64,000 bases of DNA from Solidesulfovibrio sp. Its GTDB lineage: Bacteria; Desulfobacterota; Desulfovibrionia; Desulfovibrionales; Desulfovibrionaceae. The notes below the pieces were generated by a model. The model was not told the origin of the DNA, searched no databases, and was given only the letters and a program-made list of their open reading frames with translations. The stretch is from NCBI RefSeq assembly GCF_038562415.1, contig NZ_JBCFBA010000007.1, positions 62,001 to 126,000 on the forward strand. The letters run 5' to 3'. Both the position numbers and the translations under genes were made by a program. Shown here in pieces: positions 1,936 to 26,434 of the stretch (the first letter of the stretch is position 1; each line of letters begins with the position of its first letter).

Positions 1936-2259
1936 ATGCGCAAGGTTGTCGTTTCGGTTTTCTGTTCGGCCGCCCTGTTGGGCGCGGCCACGCTGGCCCA
2001 CACCGCCGACCCGGCCGCCGCGCCGGCCCCGGCGCCCCAGGCGCAATCCGCGCCCGCGGACAAACCCCATCCGTCCACCCCCCGGGCGGACGCGGCCGAA
2101 GCCCGCTACCGGGCCTGGTCCGAGCGCGAGCACGCCAAGGACGCGGCGGAGTTCACCAAGGACAAGACCAAGATCGAGGACAAGTACAAGGGGTATGTGC
2201 GGCCCAAGCGGGAGAAAAATCCCAAATCCAGTCCATCGGGCTCCGGAAAGCAGGAATGA
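1936..2259 (+). CDS. Small exported protein of unknown function
   Basis: A 107-residue protein. The start at 1936 is preferred because a CAGGGAG ribosome binding site lies just upstream and the N-terminus is then a classical signal peptide: basic residues, a hydrophobic core (VVVSVFCSAALLGAATLA) and an A-H-T-A cleavage region. The mature part begins with an Ala/Pro-rich, disordered stretch and continues with a charged helical segment (EREHAKDAAEFTKDKTKIED). There is no recognisable domain or cofactor motif. An in-frame ATG at 1843 exists but would bury the signal peptide. The gene is divergent from the histidine kinase. Function unknown; probably periplasmic. Confidence 0.6.
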   Translation: MRKVVVSVFCSAALLGAATLAHTADPAAAPAPAPQAQSAPADKPHPSTPRADAAEARYRAWSEREHAKDAAEFTKDKTKIEDKYKGYVRPKREKNPKSSPSGSGKQE

Positions 2260-2339
2260 GCGGTAGCGGTAGCCGTAGCCGGTATGCCGCATTTCCCGTC
2301 CTGGGTTTGATTATGGAACCACCTTAACCTCTGGTGCAA

Positions 2340-3629: not shown

Positions 3630-3681
3630 CAAATACCTCGCTCGATAAAAAGCGCAGCAACTGCTTATTTCATTAAGAATA

Positions 3682-3780
3682 CAGGCAAAGCCTGCTCATA
3701 GTCAATTGCTCCCGGCAAAGCCGGGGCATATAACTGTGAGCCACGCAAAGCGGCTTCCTCTGGGGCCGCCGCAAGGCGGC
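3682..3780. repeat. Cluster of short GC-hairpins with GCAAAGC cores
   Basis: Several short palindromes lie within 100 bases: CAGGC-aaa-GCCTG (3682-3694), CCCGGC-aaa-GCCGGG (3711-3725), a CGC-aaa-GCG element (3744-3752) and GCCGCC-gcaa-GGCGGC (3765-3780). The shared AAA loop between G+C stems makes them look like one repeat type rather than independent terminators, and none is followed by a T-run. They sit directly beside the transposase-like relic at 3780-3893. This recalls IS200/IS605 ends or REP-like elements, an inference from position and shape only. Confidence 0.5.
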
Positions 3781-3893
3781 TATGCCGTTACCAGCTTCCG
3801 CTGCCCAAGCCGCTGCTCTTCTTGCCTCTGCCGGCGAACATATTCTCGGATCATTTTTTCATCACGATCCCGCACCTTGCTCTCCGTAACCAC
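3780..3893 (-). pseudogene. Relic resembling the C-terminus of an IS200-type transposase
   Basis: On the minus strand an open frame ending in TAG at 3780-3782 reads ESKVRDRDEKMIREYVRRQ and then RQEEQRLGQRKL. The pattern, a helix with IREYVRRQ followed by an acidic/basic tail, resembles the last helix of TnpA-like Y1 transposases of the IS200/IS605 group. Only about 37 codons remain. Upstream the frame runs into the succinyl-CoA synthetase gene in a different frame, so the rest is gone. The assignment is from memory of the family and is tentative. The flanking small hairpins are the main supporting context. Confidence 0.35.
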
Positions 3894-6001
3894 TACCCGC
3901 CGCACAAAAGCCCCGCCATCACCCCGGCCACATCGCCCAGCTCCGGGCAGACCGCGATGCCGGCCCGGGACAGGCAGGCCAGTTTCTCCGCCACCCCGCC
4001 CGGACGTTCGAGCAGGGCGCCGGCATGCCCCAACGCCCGGCCCGGCGGGGCGGTCAGCCCGGCCACGAAGGCCGCCACGGGCTTGGGATAGCCCTCCCCC
4101 AGCACGAAGGCCGCGGCGTCCTCCTCGGCCCGGCCGCCCACTTCGCCGATGAGCATGACCGCCCGCACCCGGTCGTCGTCGCGCACCATGCGCAGAAGCT
4201 CCACGAAGCCCGCCCCGCCGAAGGGATCGCCGCCGATGCCGGCGGCCAGGGCCTGGCCGATGCCGGCCGCCGACAGCCGCGAGCAGACTTCGTAGGTCAA
4301 CGTGCCGCTGCGTGAAAAGACCGCCACCGGTCCGGGCAGGAAGGGCTCGGGCGGCATGATGCCGGCCTGCATGCGCCCGGGCAGGAGCAGGCCCGGCGTG
4401 TTGGGGCCGAGAAACAGCGTGCCCCGGCCGCGAAGCGCCGCCCGCACGGCCAGCATGTCCTTTTGGGGCACGCCGTCGGTGATGCAGACAATGCGCGCGA
4501 TGCCGGCCTCGGCCGCTTCCAGCGCGGCGTCGGCCGCGCCGGCGGCCGGAACGAAGAGCACCGAAAGGGCGATGTCGTGGTGGCGCACGGCCTGGGCCAC
4601 GGTGTCGTACACCGGCACCCCGTCCACGTCCCCGCCGCCGCGAAAGGGCGTCACCCCGGCCGCGACACGCGTGCCGCAGGCCCGCATGCGCGCCGCGTGC
4701 AGCCGCCCGGCCCGGCCGGTCAGCCCCTGGATGAGCACCCCGCTTTCCCCGTCCAGATCGAGCAGCGACGGGAGCCCCGCGACGCCGGCCGCGGCGGCGG
4801 TCGTCTCCGGCCGCAGCGGCGCCATCCGGCAGGCCTCGGCGGCCGGGGCATCCAGGCCGTGCCGGGGGCCCACGGGCACCAGCTCGGAAAGCATGGCCAC
4901 GGCCTGGTCCATGTCCTCGGCCACGAGCAGCGCCGGCAGGCCCAGCCGCCGCAGCATGTCCGCCCCCTTGGCGGCGCTGTTGCCGGCGAAGCGCACCACC
5001 ACGGGCCGGGCCGGCGGCGCGTCGCCCAGGGCCTCGATCAGCGCCCGGGCCACGTCGGCGCAGGACAGGATGCCGCCGAACATGTTGACCAGGCAGGCGG
5101 CCACGCGCGCGTCGGCGAAAAGCAGGTCAAAGGCCGCCCGCAGCCGCACGGCATCGGCCGTGCCGCCGAAATCCAGGAAATTGGCCGCCGGCAATCCGGC
5201 CGCTTCCAGGGCGTCCATGGTGGCCATGGCCAGCCCGGCGCCGTTGGCGAGCAGCCCCACCCGGCCCGGCAGGCCGACGAAGGCCAGGCCGTATGCCGCG
5301 GCCCGGCGCTCGGCCACGGGTTGCAGGCGGTCGTCGCCGAAACGGCGCAGTTCGGGCCGCAGGGCCACCACGCTGTCGTCCAGGAGCATCTTGGCGTCCA
5401 GGGCGACCAGCCGTCCGTCCGGGGTCACGGCCAGGGGGTTGATCTCGGCCAAAAGCAGGCCATGCGCGGCCACGGCCGTGAAAAGCCGCTCCAGCAACCC
5501 ATGAAACGGTTGCCACAGTTCCTTGGGGAAACCGAGATGGAAAAAGGCCCGCCTGGCCAGGCGGGGCGTGAGGAGAAACGGCGGCGGCACGTCGAGGACG
5601 AGCAAGGCGTCGCTGCCGGCCAGCCCTTCCACGTCCACCCCGCCCTGGCCGGCCACGGTCAGGCACAGGCTCCCCCGCTGCCGCGAGACCCCCAGGGAGA
5701 GGTACACGGCCCGGTCATGGGGGATGGCCGGCTCCAGCAGCAAGAAAGGCGGCCTCGCCCCGCCGATGGCCAGGGTGAACAGGTGTTCGGCGGCCGGGGC
5801 GATTGCCTCGGCCGTTTCCAGCCGCACCACGCCGCCGGCCTTGCCCCGGCCGCCGGCCAGGACTTGCGCCTTGAGGTACCAGGGGCCGGGCCAGGGCGGC
5901 GAAACCCGGGTCTCCTCGCCCGGCCCGATGACGATGCCGGGCGGGGCCTCGATGCCGGCTTCGCGCAGCAGCGCCTTGCCGGCGTATTCGGTCAGGTGCA
6001 T
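3893..6001 (-). CDS. Fused succinyl-CoA synthetase (beta plus alpha subunits)
   Basis: A 702-residue protein that joins both subunits of an NDP-forming acyl-CoA synthetase. Residues 1 to about 385 match the beta subunit: an ATP-grasp fold beginning MHLTEYAGKALLREAGI, then the LAEINPLAV and GAGLAMATMD segments. Residues from about 415 match the alpha subunit, with a CoA-binding Rossmann region (VLIQGLTGRAG), VPQKDM, GPNTPGLL and the phospho-histidine motif GHAGA (His659). E. coli keeps these as separate sucC and sucD. Reaction inferred: succinyl-CoA + ADP + Pi to succinate + ATP + CoA. It is last in the kor operon, 119 bp after korC, which fits substrate-level ATP formation from 2-oxoglutarate. 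An acetyl-CoA or other acyl-CoA substrate cannot be excluded. The start has GGGGAG upstream. Confidence 0.88.
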   Translation of the reverse strand: MHLTEYAGKALLREAGIEAPPGIVIGPGEETRVSPPWPGPWYLKAQVLAGGRGKAGGVVRLETAEAIAPAAEHLFTLAIGGARPPFLLLEPAIPHDRAVYLSLGVSRQRGSLCLTVAGQGGVDVEGLAGSDALLVLDVPPPFLLTPRLARRAFFHLGFPKELWQPFHGLLERLFTAVAAHGLLLAEINPLAVTPDGRLVALDAKMLLDDSVVALRPELRRFGDDRLQPVAERRAAAYGLAFVGLPGRVGLLANGAGLAMATMDALEAAGLPAANFLDFGGTADAVRLRAAFDLLFADARVAACLVNMFGGILSCADVARALIEALGDAPPARPVVVRFAGNSAAKGADMLRRLGLPALLVAEDMDQAVAMLSELVPVGPRHGLDAPAAEACRMAPLRPETTAAAAGVAGLPSLLDLDGESGVLIQGLTGRAGRLHAARMRACGTRVAAGVTPFRGGGDVDGVPVYDTVAQAVRHHDIALSVLFVPAAGAADAALEAAEAGIARIVCITDGVPQKDMLAVRAALRGRGTLFLGPNTPGLLLPGRMQAGIMPPEPFLPGPVAVFSRSGTLTYEVCSRLSAAGIGQALAAGIGGDPFGGAGFVELLRMVRDDDRVRAVMLIGEVGGRAEEDAAAFVLGEGYPKPVAAFVAGLTAPPGRALGHAGALLERPGGVAEKLACLSRAGIAVCPELGDVAGVMAGLLCGG

Positions 6002-11769: not shown

Positions 11770-12084
11770 TCACTGCATCGGATCGGTAGCCCACATACAG
11801 TAGTTGCGGATTTGATTGTTTTGGCGTGCAGCGGTCTCCTTGTACTGTAAATAAACGTAAACACCGCGATGTAACGGTGGCGAGCGGATAACCGGATCAT
11901 GGGCGACGGATTTTCCCTTTGTCTCGATATGTCCTTCGATTGTTTGGGTTGAGGCAATTGTGCCGGGAAACGATGATTCTTCCTGGCCCTGTTGATATAG
12001 GTTCGCCGCATGTCCGTGTTTGTCGTGCATGACGCTTGGCGTCTGAAACAGTTTTCGCATCGTGTCGCCGGGTACGCCGCCCAT
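11770..12084 (-). CDS. Hypothetical protein, uncertain
   Basis: A possible 104-residue protein. ATG at 12084 follows GGAGGGACC, a good ribosome binding site. Composition is His/Gln/Asn-rich (MHDKHGHAANLYQQGQEES, then QYKETAARQNNQIRNYC) and more AT-rich than the flanks. No motif, membrane segment or signal peptide is evident. It lies in the decayed region left of the PPOX and anfK fragments, and the frame is continuous with the PPOX/anfK remnant frame through a stretch of random-looking sequence. It could be a true small gene or just an open frame in debris. Confidence 0.35.
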   Translation of the reverse strand: MGGVPGDTMRKLFQTPSVMHDKHGHAANLYQQGQEESSFPGTIASTQTIEGHIETKGKSVAHDPVIRSPPLHRGVYVYLQYKETAARQNNQIRNYCMWATDPMQ

Positions 12085-12413
12085 GGTCCCTCCGGCATTT
12101 GGCTCCTGCTGTTCGGAGGGAAGCGGCGAAGGCTTCGTTTCCTCCGGGTCGGAGGAGCTCCTCTTCGGTAAAACGGCGATCCGGGAAGGCCTGCGCTTCC
12201 CCGCCCTCGCCAAGCGACGGTCGCTTCCCCCCGGCGGCTTGCCGGGCCAGACGCCAACGGGCGTCGCGCTGCGGGGTTTCGTTCCTGAATCCGCCGCCTG
12301 TTCGTCTCCTGCCTGGATTTTCCCGCCGCCTCGTAATCCCCGGCGGTCCGGTTGCCGCGGTCGGCCGGGCGACCGCGCAGGCGGGTGACAGCAAATTCCC
12401 CTCCACAGCCATC
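12085..12413. other. No gene recognised between the hypothetical gene and the PPOX remnant
   Basis: About 330 bases on the anf-remnant side of the locus. Frames are open on both strands because of high GC, but none gives a recognisable protein or starts at a ribosome binding site. It probably contains unrecognisable debris of the rearranged locus plus the promoter region of the short gene to its left. Confidence 0.4.
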
Positions 12414-12930
12414 TCAAGCCAAGCCGTGGCGTTTGCCCTTGATGGACTCGATCGCGATGCGCACGACGGCCGTGGCCGCCAGGCTTGGGATAGTCGAACT
12501 TCCTGTCCGTGAACCGCGCCACGCTCCGGTCCAGGGCGGCGATCTTTTCCGCCTCGTCCTCCACCACGCTCGCCCGGCCAAGGCCCACCACGGTGCGGTG
12601 GGCGGCCTCGAAGTCGCAGGCGTTCTCACTCTCCACCACCCCCTGGTCCAGGGAGACGGCGAAGCAGAGCTTGGGATTGCGCTTGAGAATGGACATCTTC
12701 GTGCCCACGCGCGCGCCGTGGAAATACAGGACGTCGCCGGCGAAGGCGTAGAAGACCGGGACGAGAAACGGCGTGTCCTCGTCGCAAAGGGCCAGATACA
12801 GGACCTTGCCGGCCGTAAGCACGGCGTCGATGGCGGCGCGGTCCGTGACCTCCCAAAAGCGCAAGCCCTTTGGCCGCCGGCTCTCCCCTTGCCCCCCGGC
12901 CTGGGGGAAACCGCCGTGGCGGGGCCTTGC
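12414..12930 (-). pseudogene. Broken PPOX-family (pyridoxamine oxidase-like flavin) protein
   Basis: Minus-strand remnant of a split-beta-barrel flavin protein of the pyridoxamine 5'-phosphate oxidase / NimA-like type. Recognisable segments are [56 protein letters not shown] and [18 protein letters not shown]. After FDYPKP (about 12484-12490) the frame shifts. The natural ending, [20 protein letters not shown], continues in another frame to TGA at 12414-12416. The 5' end has no start codon of its own; the frame runs straight into the anfK fragment at about 12930. Both the missing start and the frameshift indicate a dead gene. Confidence 0.8.
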
Positions 12931-12936
12931 GGCCTG

Positions 12937-13311
12937 CAGGCCGATGGCCAGATCCGGGTTGCCGTAGATGGCCACGCGCTTGTCGGCGAAGAACATGTGG
13001 GCGAGGTCGGTCAGCGCGTCGATGGCGATGCCGCGCTCGCGCACGAGCGACTCGGGGATGGGCTTGCCGGTGAGCTTTCTGCGGTTGGCCAGAAAGGTGT
13101 CCGTGCTGCGGATGCCGATGGGCGTCGGGCCGATCACGGTCGGGAGGCCGAGCTCCTTTTCCAGGTACTGGGCGGCCTTGCCCCCTTCGTAGGGATTCAG
13201 CGCGATGGTGCCCACGGCGTTGGCCGTGCCTTCCAGGTCGGCGATGGTGGTCTCGCCGTGGGAGACGTGGTTGCCCGAGGGCATGAGCGGCGAATCGAAG
13301 GCCTCGATGCC
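12937..13311 (-). pseudogene. anfK: Internal fragment of Fe-only nitrogenase beta subunit
   Basis: About 125 codons on the minus strand closely resemble the middle of AnfK as remembered from Azotobacter: [59 protein letters not shown] and [20 protein letters not shown]. This corresponds roughly to residues 210-335 of about 460. The N-terminal half (with the P-cluster cysteines) and the last quarter are absent. The right edge is sharp, at 13311/13312, where a NifA-type gene begins on the other strand. The left edge lies at a 12-base palindrome GGCCTGCAGGCC (12931-12942), beyond which the frame continues into the PPOX remnant. No anfH, anfD or anfG remains in this window. Confidence 0.85.
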
Positions 13312-14171
<860 letters not shown>

Positions 14172-14332: not shown

Positions 14333-14695
14333 ATGCATCGCTTAGGTAGAGTGTTTTTCCAGTTGGCGGCTGTTGTGATCGTTATTTTTCTTGGGTGCGT
14401 GTCTCCTGCCCGGGCGATATCGATTCCTATCAACGGCAAAGTGCTCAACAGCGCCGAGACGTTCACCGGCATGGCGACGGTGTATTTCAGCGGTGGCGGC
14501 AAGTTGACCCTGACGACGAACGGGGGCGTGGCCTGCAAGGGGGATTTTATCCACGTGTCACAGCAGGAAGGCACCGGCACGGTCAGCTGCGAAGATGGCC
14601 GCCTGGGCTCCTTCAATTTCGTCACCGCCGGCTTTTCGGGCAGCGGCTCGGGGAGGATCGGCAACGAAAGCTTCGATTTTCGTATCGGAAAGTAG
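14333..14695 (+). CDS. Small exported protein of unknown function
   Basis: A 120-residue protein. The ATG at 14333 has AGAGG seven bases upstream and starts a clear signal peptide (HRLGRVFFQLAAVVIVIFLG, cleavage near SPARA). The mature part is Gly/Ser/Thr-rich and predicted mostly beta (TATVYFSGGGKLTLTTN-type strands, ending GSGSGRIGNESFDFRIGK), with two cysteines (ACKGD, VSCED) that could form a disulfide. In-frame ATGs upstream are possible but would bury the signal peptide. The family is not recognised. It is the first gene of the AT-richer island that follows the anf remnants. Confidence 0.6.
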   Translation: MHRLGRVFFQLAAVVIVIFLGCVSPARAISIPINGKVLNSAETFTGMATVYFSGGGKLTLTTNGGVACKGDFIHVSQQEGTGTVSCEDGRLGSFNFVTAGFSGSGSGRIGNESFDFRIGK

Positions 14696-15021
14696 CCGCT
14701 TCTCGCCCCTCTCTCCGCCCTGTGGCCTGATGCGACCGCGCGGCAATGGCCCAAGGGCACAGGCAACGCCGGTCTGCCCCTGCCATCGGCATCTCGCCTC
14801 GGTCCTTGTGTTCTCCCAAGCAGGACACGCACCAGAAGCGGCCCCCTTCCGGCATGTTGAACACCGAGTGGACTCTTACGAAATCGGCGCGCATTGACAG
14901 GCACCAAGTGACCGGTGTATTTGATTTGGTAAAAAACGTTGAGGCAAAGATGAGAAAATGAAGTCAGGCGGGCAAACAGCATTTCTCCTGCACCCGGCAC
15001 ACCTCTTACAATAGAAAGACT
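14696..15021. other. Intergenic stretch with a possible decayed zinc-ribbon frame
   Basis: About 325 bases with no convincing plus-strand gene. On the minus strand a frame (14622-14894) reads MPEGGRFWCVSCLGEHKDRG then EMPMAGADRRCLCP. This has a C-x2-C ... C-x-C pattern like small zinc-ribbon proteins, but its second half turns into random-looking sequence antisense to the upstream gene. It may be a short real gene or a relic. The right-hand part (14890-15020) is AT-rich and should contain the promoter of the lipoprotein-like gene at 15022. Confidence 0.35.
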
Positions 15022-15573
15022 ATGACATCAAACAATAGCGCGAAATCATGGAGCACCACAGCAACCAAGTCCACCCGAAAGCACCTATGTGTATCCTATA
15101 TACTGTCATTAGCCGTAATCATGTTCTCTTGCTCACAAGCGAACAATCAACTGGCCGAGTTGGTTACGCTCGATGATCGCGACACTGGCGACGTGTTCAT
15201 CCTGAGCGGACTGTACCCTACGGAAGGGAGCCGCTCGGACAAGTGGCGATGGGGAACCGGCCAGACCTCAAGTCTTTATTTTTATATGGACAAACCGGGT
15301 ATCGTTATCATTTCCGGCACATTTGAAAACCCCCACACAGGCCAGACAGTCAGGTTTTCATTGAATGGCAAAGAACTAGTGACCCTTTCGAACCTGCCAA
15401 AAAACGAAGACAAGGCGGCGCCACTCACATTCAACATGGAGGGTATGGCCAACCAGGGCCGTAATATTTTGGAAATTTCTTATTCCCACTGGACGGGCAA
15501 CACCGGGAGCACTTCCACAGACACGCGTAATTTTTCCGTTAAATACAGAAAGCTTACGATAACCACACGATAG
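15022..15573 (+). CDS. Membrane-anchored or lipoprotein-like protein with a beta-rich domain
   Basis: A 183-residue protein of the AT-rich island. A Lys/Thr-rich N-terminus leads to a hydrophobic segment (VSYILSLAVIMFSC, residues about 30-43) ending in a cysteine, a possible but imperfect lipobox. The rest is predicted beta-sandwich. The motif LSGLYPTEG...KWRWGTG resembles carbohydrate-binding-like accessory domains attached to membrane glycosyl- or glycerophospho-transferases; this is a resemblance only. It is followed after one base by an SGNH-hydrolase-like gene, so the two are probably co-translated and act together at the cell envelope. Confidence 0.6.
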   Translation: MTSNNSAKSWSTTATKSTRKHLCVSYILSLAVIMFSCSQANNQLAELVTLDDRDTGDVFILSGLYPTEGSRSDKWRWGTGQTSSLYFYMDKPGIVIISGTFENPHTGQTVRFSLNGKELVTLSNLPKNEDKAAPLTFNMEGMANQGRNILEISYSHWTGNTGSTSTDTRNFSVKYRKLTITTR

Positions 15574-15574
15574 T

Positions 15575-16948
15575 ATGCGCGAAAGCAACATCATACCCAT
15601 ACAGAATCTCGCAATCGGGCTACCGACTGTTGCCATCCCCTTGGTATTTTGGTACATTATAGACATAAACCTTAAAGAGATCAAGACGTTCGCCTTGATC
15701 CTAGAGGCACTATGCGTTGTAGTATTTTGTCTTTCCTTCAAAAAAAATCGTATCGGTAAAATAGCTTTAAACACTCAGCTTGTTCTTTGTTCTCTTTTTT
15801 TGTTTTTTGCTTTCTTTGAAATCACCGGTCGGTTCTTTCCCAATGTGTTTCCATACCAGATAAGAGTTTTTCTTAAGAGTGACGCTGGCCAACACGACCG
15901 GCAAGCGATGATTCAATACCTCGACCAGTCACCATGGATGAAATTCAAACCCAATGTCACGGTACGGCTTCCTGGTTTTCGGGAGCCAGCCGATAGATTT
16001 TCATACAGTTGGCAGACAGACGATTTGGGCTACAAAAACGACGCCAACCTGCTTGCCAAACCTATTACAGCGGTAGCACTGGGTGACAGTTTTACCGAAG
16101 CGATGGGATGCAAAACGGAAAATACTTGGGCGACGTTGTTGGGGGCGAAAGGATTTCCAACCTACTCTATGGGTGTGCATGGTTATGCACCGAGTCAGAT
16201 GGCAACGACCTATCGGAACTATGGCCAGGACTTCACACCGAAGTATGTTTTCATTGGATATACTGAGACTATTTTTCAACGAGAAAAGCTTTTTTTGGAT
16301 TTAACAGAAAAAAACAAAGAAGAGTTACAGAAAAACGGCTTGAGCGCTATGGCGAATTTGAATTTGCTGCTTGGACGGCAGGAAGTTCGCCTGGTAACAA
16401 AATCACCGGTCCTCGCCACCGTTATGTTTGTAATGAGCCAGAACGATCCTCTTTTTCTTAAAAAGATTTCAAACATTTCCTTCAGCAACGCCGAGGTCAA
16501 CAAAGACGTTTTTTTGCGCTATTTCAACGATCTCAAATATATCGACAACAATATTCCGGCAATAAAACTGATCGAAAACTCACCTGAGTGGACCAAATCA
16601 ATGAATAGCCTTTTAACAATCAAAGAATTGGCCGACAAAAAAGGGGCTAAAACCATTCTTATCTATTTCCCCTCCCGGCACACGATATATTATAAAAAAA
16701 TTATTGGCCAATCAATCCCAGAAGAAAAAGACTACGGGGCCAAAGAGAAAAAAGCCATTCACGATTTTTGCGCAACCAACGGGATTGTTTTTGTCGACAT
16801 ATCTCCAAGCCTTGAATCCTACGTTGCCGCCTTGCCGATAACCGCTACAGTTGACGAATTACCTTATTTCGAGTTTGATATGCATATGAACCCAACAGGG
16901 CAGCATATCATTGCTGACACGGTTGCAGCATCTTTGACTCCTAATTAA
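15575..16948 (+). CDS. Membrane-anchored SGNH hydrolase-like protein
   Basis: A 457-residue protein with about three hydrophobic helices at the N-terminus (roughly 12-30, 37-53, 63-83) and an extracytoplasmic SGNH/GDSL-type domain. The nucleophile block is ALGDSFTEAMG (Ser172) and the C-terminal catalytic pair is in FDMHMNPTGQH (Asp435, His437), the D-x-H arrangement of AlgJ/AlgX-like acetyl transferases. Such enzymes move or remove O-acetyl groups on exopolysaccharides. The ATG follows the previous stop after one base. Composition is AT-rich like its neighbours. Likely role, by inference: acyl modification of the surface glycan made by the island. The substrate is unknown. Confidence 0.78.
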   Translation: MRESNIIPIQNLAIGLPTVAIPLVFWYIIDINLKEIKTFALILEALCVVVFCLSFKKNRIGKIALNTQLVLCSLFLFFAFFEITGRFFPNVFPYQIRVFLKSDAGQHDRQAMIQYLDQSPWMKFKPNVTVRLPGFREPADRFSYSWQTDDLGYKNDANLLAKPITAVALGDSFTEAMGCKTENTWATLLGAKGFPTYSMGVHGYAPSQMATTYRNYGQDFTPKYVFIGYTETIFQREKLFLDLTEKNKEELQKNGLSAMANLNLLLGRQEVRLVTKSPVLATVMFVMSQNDPLFLKKISNISFSNAEVNKDVFLRYFNDLKYIDNNIPAIKLIENSPEWTKSMNSLLTIKELADKKGAKTILIYFPSRHTIYYKKIIGQSIPEEKDYGAKEKKAIHDFCATNGIVFVDISPSLESYVAALPITATVDELPYFEFDMHMNPTGQHIIADTVAASLTPN

Positions 16949-17053
16949 AAGACAATTTTCATTCTTTCGATACAAAAGTTATATGTGTGATTTGCGAACG
17001 CAACAAAGGACTCGCGTTCATTTCCAATCTTTAAACGCCTCACGAGCAGTTTC

Positions 17054-17992
17054 ATGAATACGACCCCCCAAAAAATATCCGTACTTCTTCCCGTCATGAA
17101 CGAAGAAGATAACATCTTGCCTCTCGTAGAGCGGCTTGTCCCTGTCCTCGAATCAGTTACTGAGGATTATGAGATCATATTTGTTGACGACGGTTCAAAA
17201 GACAATACCGCAGAAAAAATTCTTACCGCACGAAAATCAAATACAAAAATAGTTTTGATTAAACTTTCAAGAAATTTCGGACAACACTTCGCTGCACAGG
17301 CAGCTTTCGATTACTGCCATGGTGATCGTATTGTATGGATGGATGCGGATTTGCAAGAACCCCCCGAGGCAATTATCAGCCTACTCAACAAAATGGATGA
17401 AGGCTACGATGTTGTTTATGGTGTCAGAAAATCACTAGGCGGCCCTTTTTTCAAGAGAATGGGGTCATTGCTCTATATCTATGTGTTTAATAAACTTGTA
17501 AAACACCCGCAACCGATGAATGCCTCAGTCATGCGGATTTTAAACCGTAAATGTGTCGAAGCGATAAACATGATGCCCGAACGGGTTCGGTTCATCACAG
17601 CTTTAAACTCCTGGGTTGGCTTCAAATGGGCTGGCGTCGAAATCGATTATCACGTCAGGCGCTCCGGCAAGACAAAATACAATTTTTCAAAAAGGATTAA
17701 CAATGCCTTAGACGCCATCCTCTCATTCACAATGATTCCACTCAAATTCATCTCCATAGTCGGTTTTTTTATATCTTTGTTGAGCATTGCCTTTTCTTTG
17801 TGTATTCTATTAGCTTTCATCACAAAAATTTGGACAGCTGGCGTTGTTGGATGGACGACAATTGTAGTGTCGTTATTTTTTCTGGGTGGCGTACAAATGA
17901 TGTGCCTGGGTCTAATAGGTGAATATATCGGACGTATATACTTTGAAGTTAAAGCCAGACCTCTTTACATCATTGACAGCATTACAGACTAG
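17054..17992 (+). CDS. GtrB/DPM-type polyprenyl-phosphate glycosyltransferase
   Basis: A 312-residue family 2 glycosyltransferase. The GT-A core has ISVLLPVMNEEDN, VDDGSKDNT (44-52) and the metal-binding MDADLQEPPEAI (96-107). Two C-terminal transmembrane helices (about 230-257 and 268-291) are typical of GtrB/bactoprenol glucosyltransferases and ArnC-like enzymes. It should transfer a sugar from a nucleotide donor to undecaprenyl phosphate on the cytoplasmic face, giving a lipid-linked donor. The large membrane protein downstream could use that donor on the outer face, as in O-antigen modification systems. No GtrA-type flippase gene is adjacent. Confidence 0.9.
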   Translation: MNTTPQKISVLLPVMNEEDNILPLVERLVPVLESVTEDYEIIFVDDGSKDNTAEKILTARKSNTKIVLIKLSRNFGQHFAAQAAFDYCHGDRIVWMDADLQEPPEAIISLLNKMDEGYDVVYGVRKSLGGPFFKRMGSLLYIYVFNKLVKHPQPMNASVMRILNRKCVEAINMMPERVRFITALNSWVGFKWAGVEIDYHVRRSGKTKYNFSKRINNALDAILSFTMIPLKFISIVGFFISLLSIAFSLCILLAFITKIWTAGVVGWTTIVVSLFFLGGVQMMCLGLIGEYIGRIYFEVKARPLYIIDSITD

Positions 17993-18240
17993 AAACCTGA
18001 ATTTATTTTGACTGCTAAGCACCACACCACATCTCTTGACTGATACCATGAGCGCTTTTTTCGCAAACAAATCTATTTAATTAAAGAATATTGAGCTGCA
18101 CAGCCTCCATAATTCAACATGCTGTTGCGTATCCTTGTATCAAATACAGAGGCCGTTATACTTGGCACGGACCATGGTGTTCAACACCTTCAACGTTATC
18201 TTGATATATTTTGCTATCGGTATAATCGCAATCAGCAGTG

Positions 18241-20862
18241 ATGAATCAGCCACGCAAACTCTCATATAGCGTTCACCCGGCAGTCTGGGGTGCTATTGCG
18301 CTACTCTTCACCATCCAATTGATTGTCATCGGCAAGATGCGCGGGATTGGTGACCACGAAGGGTATCTGCTTAACACTTCACGGATTTTTTCTATCAATA
18401 CATACGAGGACGACGGATCTGCCAATATCGCCCTAGCACTGGGGCATGCCGAAAACCTTCCACGATACTTGCCCTATGGGATGGATATTGGTGGTCCATA
18501 TTTATATCTTGGACGCTTGGTTCTTCGAGCTGCCGATCGACTTGGATTGATCACCATCTTCGCCGACCCCTCGCTCTACCTCTTATACCCGGACACTTAT
18601 AAAAGCGTATGGAAAACGTTTGCCATATACAAAGCCGCCCTACTAATACTTGTTCCATTGTCACTGTCTTGGCTTTGTTCAAACCATTACAATAGGTCAT
18701 CCGGAATACTTGCCGCCTGGATATTCGTCGCCATGCCGTTTGTCCCAGGTTTCGAAACTCGTTTGAAAGTTGATTCGCTAGCTGTTGCCGTTGGATTGTT
18801 ATCCATAATACATCAACTTCAATACGTACGGACACGACAAGAACGATATTTTATATATGCAGCGATTTGGCTAGGCTTAACCCTGTCTATGAAATTTATT
18901 TTTATTCCAGCAGGGGTTACGCTAGCCTGTATTCATGCGTATTGCTCCATAAATCATCCTGGTCGACTGCATTATTTTTTTAAGAAAGGACTACTCGCAG
19001 CCTTTGCTCTTCTTGCAGTTTACGTAATGGCCAACCCCATGGCTCTATCCGGGTGGCTTGTATATGCACAATCGATAACTAGACACTTGGGAGAAAACAC
19101 AACAAATCCCATAAGCACGTTAAGTGCTTTATGGCTACGCTGGTCATCGCTAGATATTTTTTTGGGCCCGATTTTTATCTGGATTATCCCACCAGCTTTG
19201 ATATTATTTTCTTGGTTAATTTTTTATTCCAAGGAATACAGATTGCTCTTTGGCACATTACTTGCCTTACTTATTCTTCAGACAATATATTTCAGCGTCT
19301 CTTTCAGAGGCACTCTAGCCAATACTACATACTATTACTATTCACATTCTATTGTGGTAATTCCAATAATTTCGATATGCATCATATGGTTTCGAACCTT
19401 GACAATAGCCAAAATACCATGGCTCACCTTTCTCGTGACCCTGGCTATTTGTATTTCAATAATATTAACATTCAAGACTCAATTCAATATAATACGGTAT
19501 CTAACATCTTTAACAGACCGACAGAGTATGCTCCTTTGGATAAACCAGAATCTTCCACCAGGCACCTCCCTTGGTGTTCCTATTGAAAAAGACACGAACG
19601 TCATTAATACATTGATACAGGTTGATCCTTTTACCTACCGGGTTATACCAGTAGGAAAGGATGCTGCACTGGTCACCCAATTCAATCCTGATTACGTTTT
19701 ATGGGTACGCACCGATCCTTCGACTCCACCTCTCGCCGTTCCAGGATACACCCTGGCCGCTCGTTTTAATGATGGTGTTGAATTACCTCACAACCGTTAC
19801 GATCTCTACCAGGAAGAGGTCTATGAAATTTACGCTCGCAGAGAAAAAATATCGCCAAGAATTATTCCAAAATCACCCTGGGATCTGGAATATGATATTG
19901 GCCAGTTTGTGCGCCAAGATCCTGAACTACAATTCAATATTTTACAATTTCAAGGCTTGCACTTTTACCCAATCACATTAAATCTATTTCGTAAAACTCA
20001 AAGCACAGTAAGTCCTTTTCCAACCCAAGCTTTTGCAACATCCATACGATATGGTACTTCTCCATTGGCTTACATTCATCAAGCCGATCCTCTTTGTCTC
20101 ACTCTCTGGGGTATAAAGTACGTCATTGCAGATATGCGCCCTGAATCGGCTTTCGTTAAAAATACAATCACGACTCCAGAAGTACCCTTGGTGCCTGTGC
20201 AACGATTGCTCACTACTTTTGACAATCAAGCCAGGGAAATTGGGATTTTTAAAAATACAAGCTATTTAGGGCAAGCTTTTTTCGCTGCCGCACCTAATCC
20301 CTCAGAAGTGATCACGCTTCGCAAAGCACGAGGACGTCTCCTCGAACATCCGATAAAGACCTACGGTGAACTTTATCCAGGAAACTTGCTTCAAACCGGA
20401 AATATTAGCGCCTTAGAGGCACACTTTATTATCGAAACCGACACAACTGTAGACATTTTAATCAAAAATTCGCATTACAAGCAGTCATATCTTGTTGGCC
20501 CAGGTTATCATGACATTATTTTACCTTTTTCAGTCACCAAAACGAACGAGAGCGTTTCCTATGAAATCAATCCCATCTCAGAATCTGGGAAAATAACTGT
20601 TCATGCTTTATCGGCATCTCCCCTGCGACTGAAAAGAACACCCATCGTGTCGTTTAGTGATGTCGATCCGAACCATGGATTTGTGCATGTTGAAAGTACA
20701 GAACCAGGACGAGTTATTTTCGCTCTACCTGATCATGGATTATGGCGGGCTGAAGTGGATGGGCAGAAGGTAAAAACCATGCCAGGCCCTGCAGGATGTA
20801 TTTCTGTTCCAATACCTGCAGGCGAACATTTCATAGCTTTGAGGACAACATTTTTAGAATGA
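18241..20862 (+). CDS. Large YfhO/GT39-like membrane glycosyltransferase candidate
   Basis: An 873-residue protein starting at ATG 18241 (a GTG codon directly upstream is an alternative). The first 430 residues contain about 10-12 transmembrane segments, with an early periplasmic loop RGIGDHEGYLLNTSR reminiscent of the acidic catalytic loop of lipid-dependent GT-C enzymes. The remaining 440 residues form a large soluble region. Its end (RVIFALPDHGLWRAEVDGQK, then IPAGEHFIALR) resembles the C-terminal domain of YfhO-type membrane proteins. The function is inferred: transfer of sugar from a polyprenyl-phosphate donor, probably made by the GtrB-like enzyme just upstream. The stop overlaps the start of the methyltransferase gene (ATGA). 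AT-rich. Confidence 0.7.
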   Translation: MNQPRKLSYSVHPAVWGAIALLFTIQLIVIGKMRGIGDHEGYLLNTSRIFSINTYEDDGSANIALALGHAENLPRYLPYGMDIGGPYLYLGRLVLRAADRLGLITIFADPSLYLLYPDTYKSVWKTFAIYKAALLILVPLSLSWLCSNHYNRSSGILAAWIFVAMPFVPGFETRLKVDSLAVAVGLLSIIHQLQYVRTRQERYFIYAAIWLGLTLSMKFIFIPAGVTLACIHAYCSINHPGRLHYFFKKGLLAAFALLAVYVMANPMALSGWLVYAQSITRHLGENTTNPISTLSALWLRWSSLDIFLGPIFIWIIPPALILFSWLIFYSKEYRLLFGTLLALLILQTIYFSVSFRGTLANTTYYYYSHSIVVIPIISICIIWFRTLTIAKIPWLTFLVTLAICISIILTFKTQFNIIRYLTSLTDRQSMLLWINQNLPPGTSLGVPIEKDTNVINTLIQVDPFTYRVIPVGKDAALVTQFNPDYVLWVRTDPSTPPLAVPGYTLAARFNDGVELPHNRYDLYQEEVYEIYARREKISPRIIPKSPWDLEYDIGQFVRQDPELQFNILQFQGLHFYPITLNLFRKTQSTVSPFPTQAFATSIRYGTSPLAYIHQADPLCLTLWGIKYVIADMRPESAFVKNTITTPEVPLVPVQRLLTTFDNQAREIGIFKNTSYLGQAFFAAAPNPSEVITLRKARGRLLEHPIKTYGELYPGNLLQTGNISALEAHFIIETDTTVDILIKNSHYKQSYLVGPGYHDIILPFSVTKTNESVSYEINPISESGKITVHALSASPLRLKRTPIVSFSDVDPNHGFVHVESTEPGRVIFALPDHGLWRAEVDGQKVKTMPGPAGCISVPIPAGEHFIALRTTFLE

Positions 20863-21680
20863 ACCAATGCAAATTATCCAAAATTCGCCGAATTGTAGAC
20901 AGCAGTGTCTTTTTCCAAATACGAAATGAGCATGTGCTGCTCGGCGACATTAGCAGAAATACGCAAAGAACCGCTGGGCAGGGTTGTCTCGGGCGTTTGA
21001 AAGATTTTTTCAAACGCCATGGGAAGCTTTATTCTTTTCTGACGGCAACACTGACTTCTGTTCGCATTTCAAATCAATTCAAGCGAGAACTTGATTTCGT
21101 ATTGCAACGATATGGTGAAAATTCTGTCATTTTAAACATAGGGAGTGGGCCTTCACGCATCAAGAATCGTAATGACATTATTAATGTTGACATTTTTGCC
21201 TTTGATGCGGTCGATGTTTGCATTGGTCCTGGGCCGTTGCCCTTTAAAAACGACAGCATCGATCTCCTTATCAGTATAGCTACACTTGAGCACATTTCTG
21301 ACCCAATCGCGATAGTGCACGAATTTCGACGTGTACTGAAAGATGGCGGTGAAATGTTACTCTATATTCCTTTTATGCAACCTTTCCACGCCGCACCTTC
21401 AGACTTTCAACGCTGGACAGAAGAAGGCTGTAAAATTCTTTGCTCTGATTTTCCTCATGTTTCTTCGGGAATCGGTGCCGGGCCAACATCGGGATTCCTC
21501 TGGATTGGTTGCGAGTGGTTAGCGCTTATTCTCAGCTTCGGGAACACAACCTGCCATTCGTTGTTAAGTCTCTTGTTTATGGTAATAACCTGCCCCCTCA
21601 AGTATCTTGATGCTCTGTTCGAACGTAACCCCAATGCAAAATATATAGCTAGCGCTTTTTATGTTCTGGCCAAAAAGTAG
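20859..21680 (+). CDS. Class I SAM-dependent methyltransferase
   Basis: A 273-residue protein. The ATG at 20859 overlaps the preceding stop codon, so it is translationally coupled to the large membrane protein. After about 80 residues the methyltransferase fold appears: motif I VILNIGSGPSRI, the acidic end of strand 2 NVDIFAFDAVD, then PFKNDSIDLLISIATLEH and FRRVLKDGGEMLLYIPF. This is the Methyltransf_11-like pattern. A hydrophobic segment near residues 218-240 could touch the membrane. Its place in the island suggests methylation of a sugar or glycan end; the substrate is not visible from sequence. Confidence 0.82.
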   Translation: MNQCKLSKIRRIVDSSVFFQIRNEHVLLGDISRNTQRTAGQGCLGRLKDFFKRHGKLYSFLTATLTSVRISNQFKRELDFVLQRYGENSVILNIGSGPSRIKNRNDIINVDIFAFDAVDVCIGPGPLPFKNDSIDLLISIATLEHISDPIAIVHEFRRVLKDGGEMLLYIPFMQPFHAAPSDFQRWTEEGCKILCSDFPHVSSGIGAGPTSGFLWIGCEWLALILSFGNTTCHSLLSLLFMVITCPLKYLDALFERNPNAKYIASAFYVLAKK

Positions 21681-21937
21681 GACTCTGTAAGGATTCGTCC
21701 ACCTCGTTTTTTGCTTTAACAAACTTGCTGACAACCTGCGTACTGGCATTTTATTGTTGGAACATTCGATCATGCCGTCTCCATTCCGATACCGACCCAA
21801 AATCTTCGGAACATGTAGCAAGCGCCACCAATCATGGGTAATTTTTACTAGGAACAATAGTTGCAATTATTATGAAAGCATGTTGCCAGAATATCCTCAC
21901 TGACGGTCTTCTGTAATCCATCCAATGGGGTAACCCT

Positions 21938-23245
21938 ATGTCTTTTCCCAGAAACATGCTCTTTTCAAGCTATTATCGAATAAAAAAATTATCTTCCCAG
22001 GTTTTGGGCATTATTTCTTTTGTCATGCTAAAAATATCAACCCCAATATTGCTTGTACTGCTTTTACTCATTGGTACATATGAACTTTATCTTCGACTGA
22101 CATCTGGTTATTTCACGCCATTGATCTATACTTTCAAAGACAACATTGGATTTGTTTACGATCATTTCGCAGCACCCAACGTTGTCAATGCGTTCGGATT
22201 TGTCGATAAAGACCGTAATCCAAACATCAACGACAGAAAACGCGTACTCATTGTTGGTGATTCGTTTGTCAGTGGCACGTCACTTGCCGAGCAGATAGAA
22301 CGCGATTTAAACAAAGCAATTCCTGAAGAACACTTCGAGGTCATTCCCATGGGGTTTCCTGGAATCGGCCTTGGAAATATGTACTCTTTTGTCGAGCAGT
22401 ATGGTTTGCTTTTTAAGCCTGTCGCCGTTGTCGCCATTTTCAATTCATCCACTTTGGCAAATAATTCACGACTACTGGAATCGATTAAACTCGGATCGCA
22501 TCCAGATCATTCCATGCGCTTGTTTTTCGAAGAAGACAATGGACAATGCCATAAAATGCCTATCGATTCCAATTTTCAACAATATTTTCTCAAAGAATTG
22601 CCAGCCAGGCAGAGCAATACACTTTATACCGAAATCGACAACTTCCTGAAATCGACCATAGGCCGTCTTTATGTTTTTAGCTGGCTAAACGATATTGTCA
22701 TGAGCAGAGATCAATACGCCTTTCTTTCACGAGATAACGAATTCGCTTATCGATATTATCAATTACGATCGACGCCGTCCTTTAATCAGCAATTGTCTGA
22801 TTGGTTGTTCCCTGCCGACCTCGATATAAACAATATGTTTTGGATTTCAACGGAAGAATTGCCCGTCGTTTTTCGTAGCGCATTAAATTCCACAAAATGT
22901 GCCTTCATTGAATTCAACAAACTCGCTTCTGCAAATGACTTCAAATTCATCGTCGCAATATCGGACGATTGCTCAGCACAAAATTCATTACAAAAAAGTG
23001 AATTTCAATACCGATCAGACAAAACACAACGCCACTTCATTGACCAAGGATATAAAAATAAGGTTGTGACAATAGCCGAAGAAACAAGAACAAAGTATAT
23101 TGACCTTTTTAATGCTTTTAAAATCAATCAAGACGCTTTTCATCAATATCAGAATATTCACTGGAATGAAGAAGGAATCAAGATAGCCGCTTTTAGCATC
23201 AGTAAATACATTGTTTCGACATTGTCCATCAACCAAACACCATAA
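21938..23245 (+). CDS. Second membrane-anchored SGNH-like protein, with Asp to Asn change
   Basis: A 435-residue protein with one strong N-terminal transmembrane helix (about 30-50) and an extracytoplasmic domain. It has the nucleophile block VLIVGDSFVSGTS (Ser119) and a C-terminal NIHWNEEG block. Here the histidine (His408) is kept but the usual aspartate two residues earlier is asparagine (Asn406). It may therefore be a weak enzyme or a binding protein, or another acidic residue may serve. It ends the AT-rich island; a 15-bp hairpin follows. The paralogous protein upstream (15575-16948) keeps the standard D-x-H pair. A role in acylating the surface glycan is inferred. Confidence 0.72.
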   Translation: MSFPRNMLFSSYYRIKKLSSQVLGIISFVMLKISTPILLVLLLLIGTYELYLRLTSGYFTPLIYTFKDNIGFVYDHFAAPNVVNAFGFVDKDRNPNINDRKRVLIVGDSFVSGTSLAEQIERDLNKAIPEEHFEVIPMGFPGIGLGNMYSFVEQYGLLFKPVAVVAIFNSSTLANNSRLLESIKLGSHPDHSMRLFFEEDNGQCHKMPIDSNFQQYFLKELPARQSNTLYTEIDNFLKSTIGRLYVFSWLNDIVMSRDQYAFLSRDNEFAYRYYQLRSTPSFNQQLSDWLFPADLDINNMFWISTEELPVVFRSALNSTKCAFIEFNKLASANDFKFIVAISDDCSAQNSLQKSEFQYRSDKTQRHFIDQGYKNKVVTIAEETRTKYIDLFNAFKINQDAFHQYQNIHWNEEGIKIAAFSISKYIVSTLSINQTP

Positions 23246-24442: not shown

Positions 24443-24460
24443 GGAAATTTGAAAATTTCC
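24443..24460. promoter_or_regulatory. Perfect palindrome in the divergent cysK promoter region
   Basis: GGAAATTT-ga-AAATTTCC: two perfect 8-base arms around a 2-base centre. It lies in the 319-base gap between cysK (minus, start 24291) and the MptE-like gene (plus, start 24611). The arms are too AT-rich and the spacer too short for a terminator, so a dimeric regulator's binding site is more likely. Confidence 0.5.
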
Positions 24461-24610
24461 TTCCCGGTTGCCATGCATCCTGCCCCAGGGCAGACCCCGA
24501 CACGCCTGCCCCTTTCCACCGGCACCGAGGCCATTCCGAACCGCCCGGGCTTGCCTCCCGCTGCCGGCTTCCCTATGCTCGGCGGATCACGCCGCAAGAA
24601 GGATCGTCCT

Positions 24611-26434
24611 ATGCCCTTGCCCGCATTTCTGGCCGTCAACGACGCCGTCCCGGAACTCGACGGCCAATGCCTTGCCTGCCTCGGCCGCCCGGAGGTTCTC
24701 CCCGAGCGCCACCGCGGCACGACCCTCGTGTTTGACACCGTCACCGAGGAGACCCTTGCCCATATCGCCGCCCTGGACCCGAAGCTCATGGCCGAAGGCC
24801 TGGTCATCGTCACCTCGACCCCGGAGCACCAGGCGCGCCCGCGGGCCGTGCTGCGGGCGCAAAAGCTGCTGGCCTACCTGTTCGTGAAAAACGTCTTGAT
24901 GCCGGCAGGCTCCACGCGGGTTCCCGATCCCCTGCACCTGCGGCCCGACAACGCGCCGCCGGAATACCTGCATCAGCTCAACATCTATCGCAACACGCCC
25001 CTGCACCTGCGCCACTGCCTGGTGGACAAGCTGGAAAAACAACGCGTGGGCCTGCCCTGCCTGCTGCTGCTGCCGGGGCCGTCCCTGTCGCAACTCGCCC
25101 CCTCCTTGCGGGAACTGAACCGGCGCTTCCTGACCGTGGCCATCTCCCGCAGCCTGCCCTTTTTGCGCCAAAACGGCCTCAAGCCCGACATCCTGCTGCA
25201 AATCGACACCGTCCCCATGCAGCAGCATTTCCACGATCCCGACGAGCGGTTCCCCGACTCCGTGCTGCTGACCCTGTCCCTGGCCCCGGTCCACGGCATC
25301 GCCCCGCGCTTTCGCCGGGTGTTTTTCATCGACAGCTTCAACCTGGCGGCCCTGCCCAATACGGCCAGAATCCGGGAATCCTGGCTCAGCTCGCTGCTGG
25401 CCGTTCTCGGCTGCGCCGAAGCCCTGCATGCCCCGCGTGTGCTGCTGGCCGGAGCCGACCTGCGCCTGGTGGGCAATGCCACCTATTTCAACGAGGGCGA
25501 GGGCGACCTCGGCCCGGGGCTGGACCAGCCCGCCGCGCCCATGCGCTGCCACGACGGGGACACCGTCGTTCTCCCCGACGCCATGGGCCGCCCGGCCCAC
25601 ACCAGGCTGCAGTATTTCGCCTCCGCCGGCGAAGCCGAGCTGTTCGCCACCCAAATCCAGGCCGACAAGGGGACAACCTTCGGCAACCTCTCGCCGGTGA
25701 GCATCCTCGACCAGGCGATCTTTCCCCCCGTGGCGCTTGAAGAGGCGCTGGCCGCCCCGGCAATCGACAAGCGCGTCCTTATGGCCAAGGCCGACGCGGC
25801 CGACACCGCCAGCGAAACCATTTCCCTGCGCTCCTTGCGGGCCACGTACAGCCGCGAGATGCAAAACGCCCGCAAGGACCGCGACCTCATGACCTGCCTG
25901 CACCTGGGCGGGGCCGAGGCGCTGGAGCGTCATGTCTGCTTCCGCTATGTCCGGGACAACCTGCCCTGGTTCCGCCCGAAGGACGTATCCAAGCAGGGGC
26001 TGGTGGCCGCCAACCTGGCCGGGGAGCTGTACCGGGCGGCCCGCTTCGCCCGAAACGTCACCACCCTCCACCTGCTGGGCGCCAAAGGCTCGGCCGTGCC
26101 GGTGTTGGCCACGGCCGAGGAGGAGGCCTGGGCCCGCCGGGGGCTCTCCCAGTGGCGGCCGGACTGGAAATGGCGCTTCTGCGGCATCAGGACCCTGGGC
26201 TACGAGGCGCCCATGCCCACGGGCGGCGGCGTCGAACTCGCCTCCTTGTGCGACTGGCTTTCCTTCCAAGACGCGGTGGTCATCTCGCCCGGCCTGGCCA
26301 GGGAGTTCGACTACGTCCTGTCCCTGGTCTCGGGCGAAAACGTGATGCCCCTGGAGGAACTGCTCGCCTACCGGCCGGTGGCCGGGGAAGACGGCCAGGA
26401 GGGCCAGGCCGGCGACGAGCCCGCCGCCCCGTGA
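24611..26434 (+). CDS. MptE-like (DUF115) protein, motility accessory factor type
   Basis: A 607-residue protein. The central region (about 140-330) resembles DUF115 / 6-hydroxymethylpterin diphosphokinase MptE-like proteins: [40 protein letters not shown] and DILLQIDT, then [12 protein letters not shown]. In flagellated bacteria this family includes the Maf proteins that attach nonulosonic acids to flagellin. The start at 24611 follows AAGGA. Nearby genes encode a glycosyltransferase and a NeuB-type sialic or pseudaminic acid synthase, which supports a role in glycosylation rather than pterin synthesis. The exact acceptor is unknown; no flagellin gene is in the window. Confidence 0.68.

What the first reader, a model, noticed from the sequence alone, without database searches (positions are those of the whole stretch)
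14333..23245. AT-rich surface-glycan island with a possible undescribed modification system
Six linked plus-strand genes plus an exported protein form an island much more AT-rich than its flanks: beta-rich lipoprotein-like protein, SGNH protein, GtrB-like transferase, 874-residue membrane protein with YfhO-like tail, methyltransferase, second SGNH protein. It looks like an O-antigen-style modification unit in which the GtrB-like enzyme charges a polyprenyl carrier, the large membrane protein transfers the sugar, and SGNH and methyl groups decorate the product. The exact combination is not one I recognise as a named system.
Basis: inference. Interest (0 to 1): 0.7.

Follow-up and report, generated by a model that had tools for sequence, protein, structure and literature searches.

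The report
Sugar-adding cassette with methylation genes
A foreign-looking stretch of DNA in a sulphate-reducing bacterium carries a small kit that probably hangs a methylated sugar on the cell's outer sugar coat; the general kind of kit is known, but this gene mix, with a methylating enzyme kept near the sugar-transferring enzyme in the relatives examined, looks like an undescribed version.

Summary
Six plus-strand genes (15,022-23,245) have 38-49% GC against 58-69% for measured neighbours; the exported-protein gene at 14,333 (58%) is probably outside the island. The 874-residue protein is predicted to be a GT-C transferase (Z 27 to ALG12, 24 to Pmt4, 21 to ArnT) with an invariant EDD motif. 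The GT2 is a clear GtrB relative. GT-C homologues occur in 12 of 199 family genomes, own included. In the 11 other loci a methyltransferase gene is next to it (10) or one gene away (1), and a GT2 lies near it in 10, although methyltransferase families differ. So the core is GT2 + methyltransferase + GT-C. Homologues of either SGNH protein were not found near other copies; a CBM-domain protein lies 6.5 kb away in one locus and an unrelated SGNH gene close by in another. The beta-rich protein folds like CBM35/CBM6 modules. No GtrA flippase was detected in the genome. Best reading: a three-component-like cassette adding a methylated sugar to a surface glycan. New variant of a known kind.

The parts
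14333..14695 (+). exported small beta-rich protein (120 aa; export and beta content judged by eye); probably outside the island
   Evidence: ORF; GC 57.6%; no family above a cut-off
15022..15573 (+). bp: exported or lipoprotein-like protein (signal judged by eye and hydropathy), 183 aa, CBM35/CBM6-like jelly-roll domain (residues about 60-183)
   Evidence: model pLDDT 78; Foldseek and VIA best matches CBM35/CBM6, Z up to 11.4; same domain at the C-terminus of PMT-type GT-C and AT3 acyltransferase proteins
15575..16948 (+). sgnhA: 457 aa, hydrophobic N-terminal segments plus SGNH/AlgX-like domain with GDSF (170) and DMHMN (435)
   Evidence: Pfam ALGX just above its cut-off, 27.6 against 26.5 bits; motifs; 34% homologue inside a polysaccharide gene cluster
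17054..17992 (+). gtrB: polyprenyl-phosphate glycosyltransferase, 312 aa, GT2 with DAD motif (97) and C-terminal membrane segments
   Evidence: PDB GtrB sll0501 E 7.5e-79, ArnC E 2.7e-56; Shigella phage SfII GtrB 36.6% over 96%; hydropathy
18238..20862 (+). gtc: GT-C glycosyltransferase, 874 aa; membrane domain, invariant E57-D58-D59 in the first exported loop, C-terminal beta domains (685-797 CBM-like)
   Evidence: A1; model pLDDT 79, pTM 0.81; Foldseek and VIA
20859..21680 (+). mt: SAM-dependent class I methyltransferase, 273 aa, start overlapping the gtc stop
   Evidence: Pfam Methyltransf_11 E 1.3e-8; 45-46% homologues beside gtc in three genomes; sequence
21938..23245 (+). sgnhB: one N-terminal membrane segment plus SGNH-like domain, 435 aa; GDSF (107), catalytic Asp replaced by Asn (NIHWN, 406)
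   Evidence: homologues 53-54% and 31%; alignment; Pfam only E 0.074 for the window protein, ALGX above cut-off for the 31% relative

Best explanation
A horizontally acquired extracytoplasmic glycan-modification cassette. Inferred order of events: the GtrB-like GT2 loads a sugar from a nucleotide sugar onto undecaprenyl phosphate at the inner face of the membrane; the cytoplasmic methyltransferase methylates the sugar (as nucleotide sugar, as lipid-linked sugar, or on the acceptor); a flippase that is not GtrA turns the lipid over; the GT-C enzyme transfers the sugar outside the membrane to a surface glycan, perhaps held by its CBM-like C-terminal domain. The CBM-like protein and SGNH-A probably act as a periplasmic pair that O-acylates or trims the same or a nearby glycan; SGNH-B may be a weakened relative. 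Shown by computation: the predicted folds and family relations, and the conserved GT2-methyltransferase-GT-C linkage. Inferred: acquisition (from composition), the sugar, the acceptor, the methylation step, and every part of the SGNH role.
For: GT-C fold with acidic motif invariant in 11 of 11 aligned rows (the twelfth homologue, cut by a contig end, was left out). GtrB identity. In the 11 other gtc loci a methyltransferase is the next gene in 10 and one gene away in 1, and a GT2 lies within a few genes in 10, while the methyltransferases fall into families that do not match one another over their length: the partner role is kept although the protein differs. Sugar-tailoring genes near other gtc homologues: DegT aminotransferase somewhere in 7 of 11 stretches, B12 radical-SAM in 2, and, among the few neighbours scanned, one formyltransferase and one WbqC. 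CBM-like bp. sgnhA relative in a cluster with a Bac_transf sugar transferase. Two MBOAT genes elsewhere in the genome, one beside an ALGX-family gene.
Against: No GtrA found in the genome, and none of the island proteins matched a flippase family in Pfam. No sgnhA or sgnhB homologue in the 11 other gtc loci; a bp-domain protein in only 1 of 11, 6.5 kb away. The two closest sgnhB relatives stand in AT-rich pockets without gtc, and the 31% relative is in a 62% GC gene; sgnhB lacks the catalytic Asp. The 105-257 bp gaps are no proof of one operon, and promoter- and terminator-like sites are at chance level. The window GT2 is only 26-30% identical to GT2s of other gtc loci. The gtc tree does not group the four loci that share the window's methyltransferase family as one clade (in 22% of bootstrap trees). 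A genome with a strong mt relative carries GT2 and DegT with no gtc found.
Confidence: 0.6

Rival explanations
1. Only GT2, methyltransferase and GT-C form a functional unit; the CBM-like and SGNH genes are unrelated AT-rich passengers gathered in a hot spot.
For: No SGNH homologue and only one distant bp-domain protein in the other gtc loci; two sgnhB relatives sit in 41-45% GC pockets; large gaps; the left flank holds gene remnants, and four relatives with a close cysK share no other flanking DNA with the window.
Against: One other core locus has an unrelated SGNH gene two genes after gtc; the strongest sgnhA relative lies in a glycan cluster; five of the six genes have similar GC, 38.5-43.4%.
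Confidence: 0.4
2. The GT-C enzyme glycosylates exported proteins (PMT- or OST-like), not a polysaccharide.
For: Pmt4, STT3 and AglB are among the best structural matches; sub-threshold Pfam PMT_2.
Against: ALG12 and ArnT, which glycosylate lipid-linked acceptors (recalled), match about as well; C-terminal CBM-like domain; neighbours in other loci include sugar-tailoring genes.
Confidence: 0.15
3. The methyltransferase acts on the backbone (for example a chain-end methyl cap) and not on the added sugar.
For: A methyltransferase-kinase chain terminator is known in O-polysaccharide loci (PMC11127046, passages read); the methyltransferase substrate is untested.
Against: The partner is kept near GT-C and GT2 even where its family differs.
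Confidence: 0.3

Closest known systems
GtrA/GtrB/Gtr serotype-conversion systems (Shigella, Salmonella, phage SfII)
   Same: GtrB-like GT2 plus GT-C enzyme encoded together
   Different: no GtrA found; adds methyltransferase, CBM-like and SGNH genes; no sequence-family match of the GT-C to a named family at cut-off
CsbB-YfhO teichoic-acid glycosylation in Bacillus and Listeria (PMC5836110, passages read)
   Same: GT2 and GT-C gene pair; flippase not encoded in the pair
   Different: Gram-negative host; no Pfam YfhO match for the protein; methyltransferase linkage
gsf cluster of Actinoplanes missouriensis (PMC13390465, passages read)
   Same: published GtrA-dependent cluster that also holds GT2s, a SAM methyltransferase, an AT3 acyltransferase and an 11-helix protein without predicted domain
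   Different: has GtrA; its authors name no GT-C enzyme in the passages read; actinobacterium; methylation is not presented in the passages read as a linked step
ORF12/GT136 three-component pentofuranose addition (PMC11127046, passages read)
   Same: GT-C with a C-terminal CBM, lipid-linked donor, post-polymerisation side sugar
   Different: donor made from PRPP, not by a GtrB-type GT2; its flippase gene is in the cluster
ArnC/ArnT aminoarabinose pathway
   Same: GT2 resembles ArnC (PDB E 2.7e-56) and gtc resembles ArnT (Z 21); related loci hold aminotransferase and, in one, formyltransferase genes
   Different: no aminotransferase, formyltransferase or deformylase match among the island proteins; acceptor not known
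MBOAT-SGNH and AlgX-type polysaccharide O-acetylation (PMC12148441, outline with abstract and start of introduction read)
   Same: membrane-anchored AlgX-like SGNH protein with Ser and DxH motif; CBM-like partner
   Different: no MBOAT or AT3 match in the island; sgnhB lacks the Asp

Membership tests
Three-component (Gtr-type) glycosylation system | GtrB-type polyprenyl-phosphate GT2 with DXD motif and C-terminal membrane segments | tested here: met
Three-component (Gtr-type) glycosylation system | GT-C fold transferase encoded with it | tested here: met
   predicted model
Three-component (Gtr-type) glycosylation system | acidic motif in an exported loop of the GT-C enzyme | tested here: met
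   E57-D58-D59 invariant in 11 of 11 rows; loop position from hydropathy; that loop is low-confidence in the model
Three-component (Gtr-type) glycosylation system | GtrA-type flippase | tested here: not met
   no PF04138 match in own genome, 7 of 14 control genomes positive; another flippase type is not excluded
Three-component (Gtr-type) glycosylation system | lipid-linked donor transferred to a surface glycan | not testable with these tools
   needs biochemistry
YfhO family (Pfam) | match to the Pfam model | tested here: not met
   not listed at E up to 1
CBM35/CBM6-like modules (bp) | jelly-roll fold of the clan | tested here: met
CBM35/CBM6-like modules (bp) | sequence-family match | tested here: inconclusive
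   none for bp; E 0.0087, under cut-off, in one homologue; profile E 0.017 to GH31 chains
CBM35/CBM6-like modules (bp) | carbohydrate binding | not testable with these tools
   needs binding assay
MBOAT-SGNH acyltransferase system | SGNH protein with catalytic Ser, Asp and His | tested here: met
   sgnhA by motif; sgnhB has Asn for Asp
MBOAT-SGNH acyltransferase system | MBOAT or AT3 partner encoded alongside | tested here: not met
   none among the island proteins; two MBOAT genes elsewhere in the genome; AT3 genes elsewhere not searched
Arn-like amino-sugar pathway | DegT-type aminotransferase in the cluster | tested here: not met
   none among the island proteins; present in 7 of 11 related stretches

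The most novel reading that the evidence does not exclude
A modular 'tailored-sugar' cassette built round one GT-C family of Desulfovibrionaceae: the same extracytoplasmic transferase is paired in each lineage with different cytoplasmic tailoring enzymes (class I methyltransferases of unrelated families, B12 radical-SAM, formyltransferase, aminotransferase) that act on the undecaprenyl-phosphate-linked sugar before it is flipped, so that methylation of a lipid-linked sugar becomes a fourth component of Gtr-type systems.
Probability: 0.25. Interest if true: 0.55.

Novelty: new variant of a known kind. Interest (0 to 1): 0.35.

Why it matters
It would extend three-component surface-glycan modification to Desulfovibrionaceae and add methylation as a linked step, giving a testable case of how one GT-C scaffold is reused with changing sugar-tailoring partners. 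It also points to a CBM35/CBM6-like domain, without a Pfam family at cut-off in the proteins scanned here, that recurs on glycan enzymes of these bacteria.

Tried and rejected
Mobile-element origin: no plasmid match for the island DNA, for gtc or for sgnhA; no phage match for sgnhA; no viral contig for gtc or sgnhA. bp, mt and sgnhB were not searched in phages or viral contigs. GtrB itself matches 133 phage records, all under 60% identity; this shows family, not origin. The nearest tRNA found is about 5 kb left of the island; repeats found near the edges are short.

Empty-site test: orthologues of the downstream cysK (81-83% identity) in four genus members share no other flanking DNA or tested flanking protein with the window, so no empty site could be shown.

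Homology between gtc and bp: not supported by profile comparison.

The phylum search (395 genomes) gave only partial matches besides the own genome.

SGNH labels: two proteins that I first took for SGNH by eye (L047, 513 aa; L099, 400 aa) have no Pfam support, so they are not counted; in L099 only the MBOAT and the bp-domain protein are supported. The SGNH scan of the other loci used a crude motif pattern that would miss divergent members. The sgnhB reading rests on a GDSF motif and on relatives.

Literature: of six paper searches, bear on the combination. I saw their listings; from them I read passages of PMC11127046, PMC5836110 and PMC13390465. The last describes a GtrA-dependent cluster with methyltransferase and AT3 acyltransferase genes, which I had overlooked at first; it lowers my interest score from 0.38 to 0.35. 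I saw no description of a conserved GT2 + methyltransferase + GT-C unit, but most subscription journals are not in the library.
Full report
Observation. The window lies in a 5.07 Mb genome (G000). Six plus-strand genes between 15,022 and 23,245 have 38.5-48.7% GC, against 65-69% for the two genes just downstream. The exported-protein gene at 14,333 (57.6% GC) is intermediate and I leave it out of the island.

The large membrane protein. An AlphaFold2 model built on 11 sequences has mean pLDDT 79.4 and pTM 0.81. Foldseek and VIA-align both place residues 9-538 on GT-C transferases: ALG12 (Z 27.1, 429 residues, 6.9 A), Pmt4 (23.8, 380, 3.9 A), ArnT (21.0, 322, 3.6 A), STT3, PglB, AftB. Residues E57-D58-D59 are invariant in 11 of 11 rows, in the stretch after the first membrane segment; modified DXD motifs in an extracellular loop are a stated mark of GT-C enzymes (PMC5836110, passage read). 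That loop itself is modelled poorly (pLDDT under 50 at 38-57). Residues 685-797 resemble a carbohydrate-binding module (8xmz, Z 9.4), though such middling Z values are common and toxin binding domains of the same shape score close behind.

The GT2. It matches the solved GtrB sll0501 over residues 7-309 (E 7.5e-79) and ArnC (E 2.7e-56), and GtrB of Shigella phage SfII at 36.6% over 96%. It keeps the DAD motif and C-terminal membrane segments. It most likely loads a sugar on undecaprenyl phosphate (inference from the family).

Linkage elsewhere. gtc homologues (30-37% identity) occur in 12 of 199 family genomes, own included, in two genera; one of the 12 is cut by a contig end. I fetched 11.9-20 kb round each of the 11 others. 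A methyltransferase is the neighbouring gene in 10 of 11; in L015 a B12 radical-SAM gene lies between. A GT2 lies within a few genes in 10 of 11; in L013 none was found and a radical-SAM/SPASM gene lies beyond the methyltransferase. The query methyltransferases and one GT2 query were themselves taken from these loci after inspection; Pfam confirmed three of the methyltransferases and three of the GT2s. The loci are not independent: by near-identity they make about seven lineages. A rough chance level: 48 Methyltransf_11 matches in the 5.07 Mb own genome, so, assuming one gene per kb, about 2% of genes would have one as a direct neighbour; glycan regions are probably richer in methyltransferases than average, so this overstates the contrast. 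The window's methyltransferase family (45-46% identity) recurs in L014, L017 and L018; seven other loci use a family that gives no full-length match to it (seven matched by queries of that family; five of them compared), and L013 a third, related to the second. The gtc tree makes those seven loci one clade (100/100) but does not group the four that share the window's family (22% of bootstrap trees); the window's own place is weak and on a long branch. In the reverse test, the five genomes with strong matches to the window's methyltransferase family (E below 1e-70, own included) comprise four with gtc beside it and one (G069) where it sits with a GT2, a second methyltransferase and a DegT gene but no gtc was found. 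DegT aminotransferase genes lie in 7 of 11 fetched stretches, not always close; B12 radical-SAM genes lie next to gtc in L015 (by similarity) and L016 (by Pfam). I scanned only some other neighbours: a formyltransferase lies next to gtc in L018 and a WbqC-like gene in L013. This points to a cassette that prepares tailored sugars for one transferase family.

The accessory genes. The beta-rich protein (bp) folds like CBM35/CBM6 modules (model pLDDT 78; best Z 11.4 over 121 residues). Other proteins of this jelly-roll shape (meprin, Eph receptor, toxin binding domains) score close behind, so the fold is firm and sugar binding is inferred. The domain occurs in 21 of 199 family genomes, own included. 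In the 19 proteins, it lies at or near the C-terminus of a larger open frame in 17 and makes up most of the protein in 2 (L045, L050). Those identified by Pfam are PMT_2-type GT-C proteins (two: L095, L094) and an AT3 acyltransferase; most of the others gave no Pfam family. In L099 it lies beside an MBOAT gene. In L013 a protein with two copies lies 6.5 kb from gtc. sgnhA just passes the Pfam ALGX cut-off and has intact GDSF and DxH motifs; its only strong relative among 390 phylum genomes besides itself (34%) lies in a polysaccharide cluster with a Bac_transf sugar transferase, and the family search gave only weak partial matches. sgnhB has two relatives of 53-54% in AT-rich pockets (41-45% GC) and one of 31% in a 62% GC gene; in it alone among the four aligned sequences the Asp of the DxH motif is Asn. 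No sgnhA or sgnhB homologue was found in the 11 other gtc stretches; one unrelated SGNH gene is two genes downstream of gtc in L016.

Mechanism. The best reading is a Gtr-type, lipid-linked, extracytoplasmic glycosylation in which methylation is a linked step, with a CBM-like protein and SGNH-A as probable periplasmic acyl modifiers. The flippase is missing: no GtrA (PF04138) was found in the genome, while the same search found it in 7 of 14 control genomes. In the 2018 B. subtilis study the flippase of the CsbB-YfhO system was also unknown and not part of the gene pair (PMC5836110, passages), so this is not fatal. Acyl donors for the SGNH proteins could come from the two MBOAT proteins elsewhere, one of which lies beside an ALGX-family gene; this is inference.

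Comparison. Three-component systems with GT-C enzymes, including one with a C-terminal CBM (GT136; PMC11127046, passages read), are well described, so the kind is known. A GtrA-dependent cluster with methyltransferase and acyltransferase genes is also in print (gsf of Actinoplanes missouriensis; PMC13390465, passages read), so the mere presence of such genes is not new. What I did not find described is the conserved methyltransferase partner and the change of tailoring enzymes round one GT-C family (searches). I rate it a new variant of a known kind.

Noticed in passing
window 11770-14171: Apparent gene remnants: a nitrogenase component 1 fragment (profile 177-305 of 399) in one minus-strand frame with a pyridoxamine-oxidase-like stretch, and a sigma-54 activator whose AAA match lacks the start of the domain and which is spread over two plus-strand frames.
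   Followed up: partly
window 2000-4000: A second AT-rich patch (47% GC) holding a DUF3391/HD-domain gene at 2340-3632 on the minus strand.
   Followed up: no
   Followed up: partly
L036-L054, L094, L095, L013 1052-2110: A CBM35/CBM6-like domain of about 120 residues, with no Pfam family at cut-off in the proteins scanned, recurs in many proteins of Desulfovibrionaceae, mostly C-terminal; one protein has two copies.
   Followed up: partly
window 24449-26434: MptE-like (PF01973) protein of 661 residues beyond cysK; a weak NCBIfam match to flagellin modification protein PseD (E 0.037).
   Followed up: no
L152 8741-13829 (G069): Relative of the window methyltransferase followed by GT2, second methyltransferase and DegT, with no gtc found.
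   Followed up: partly
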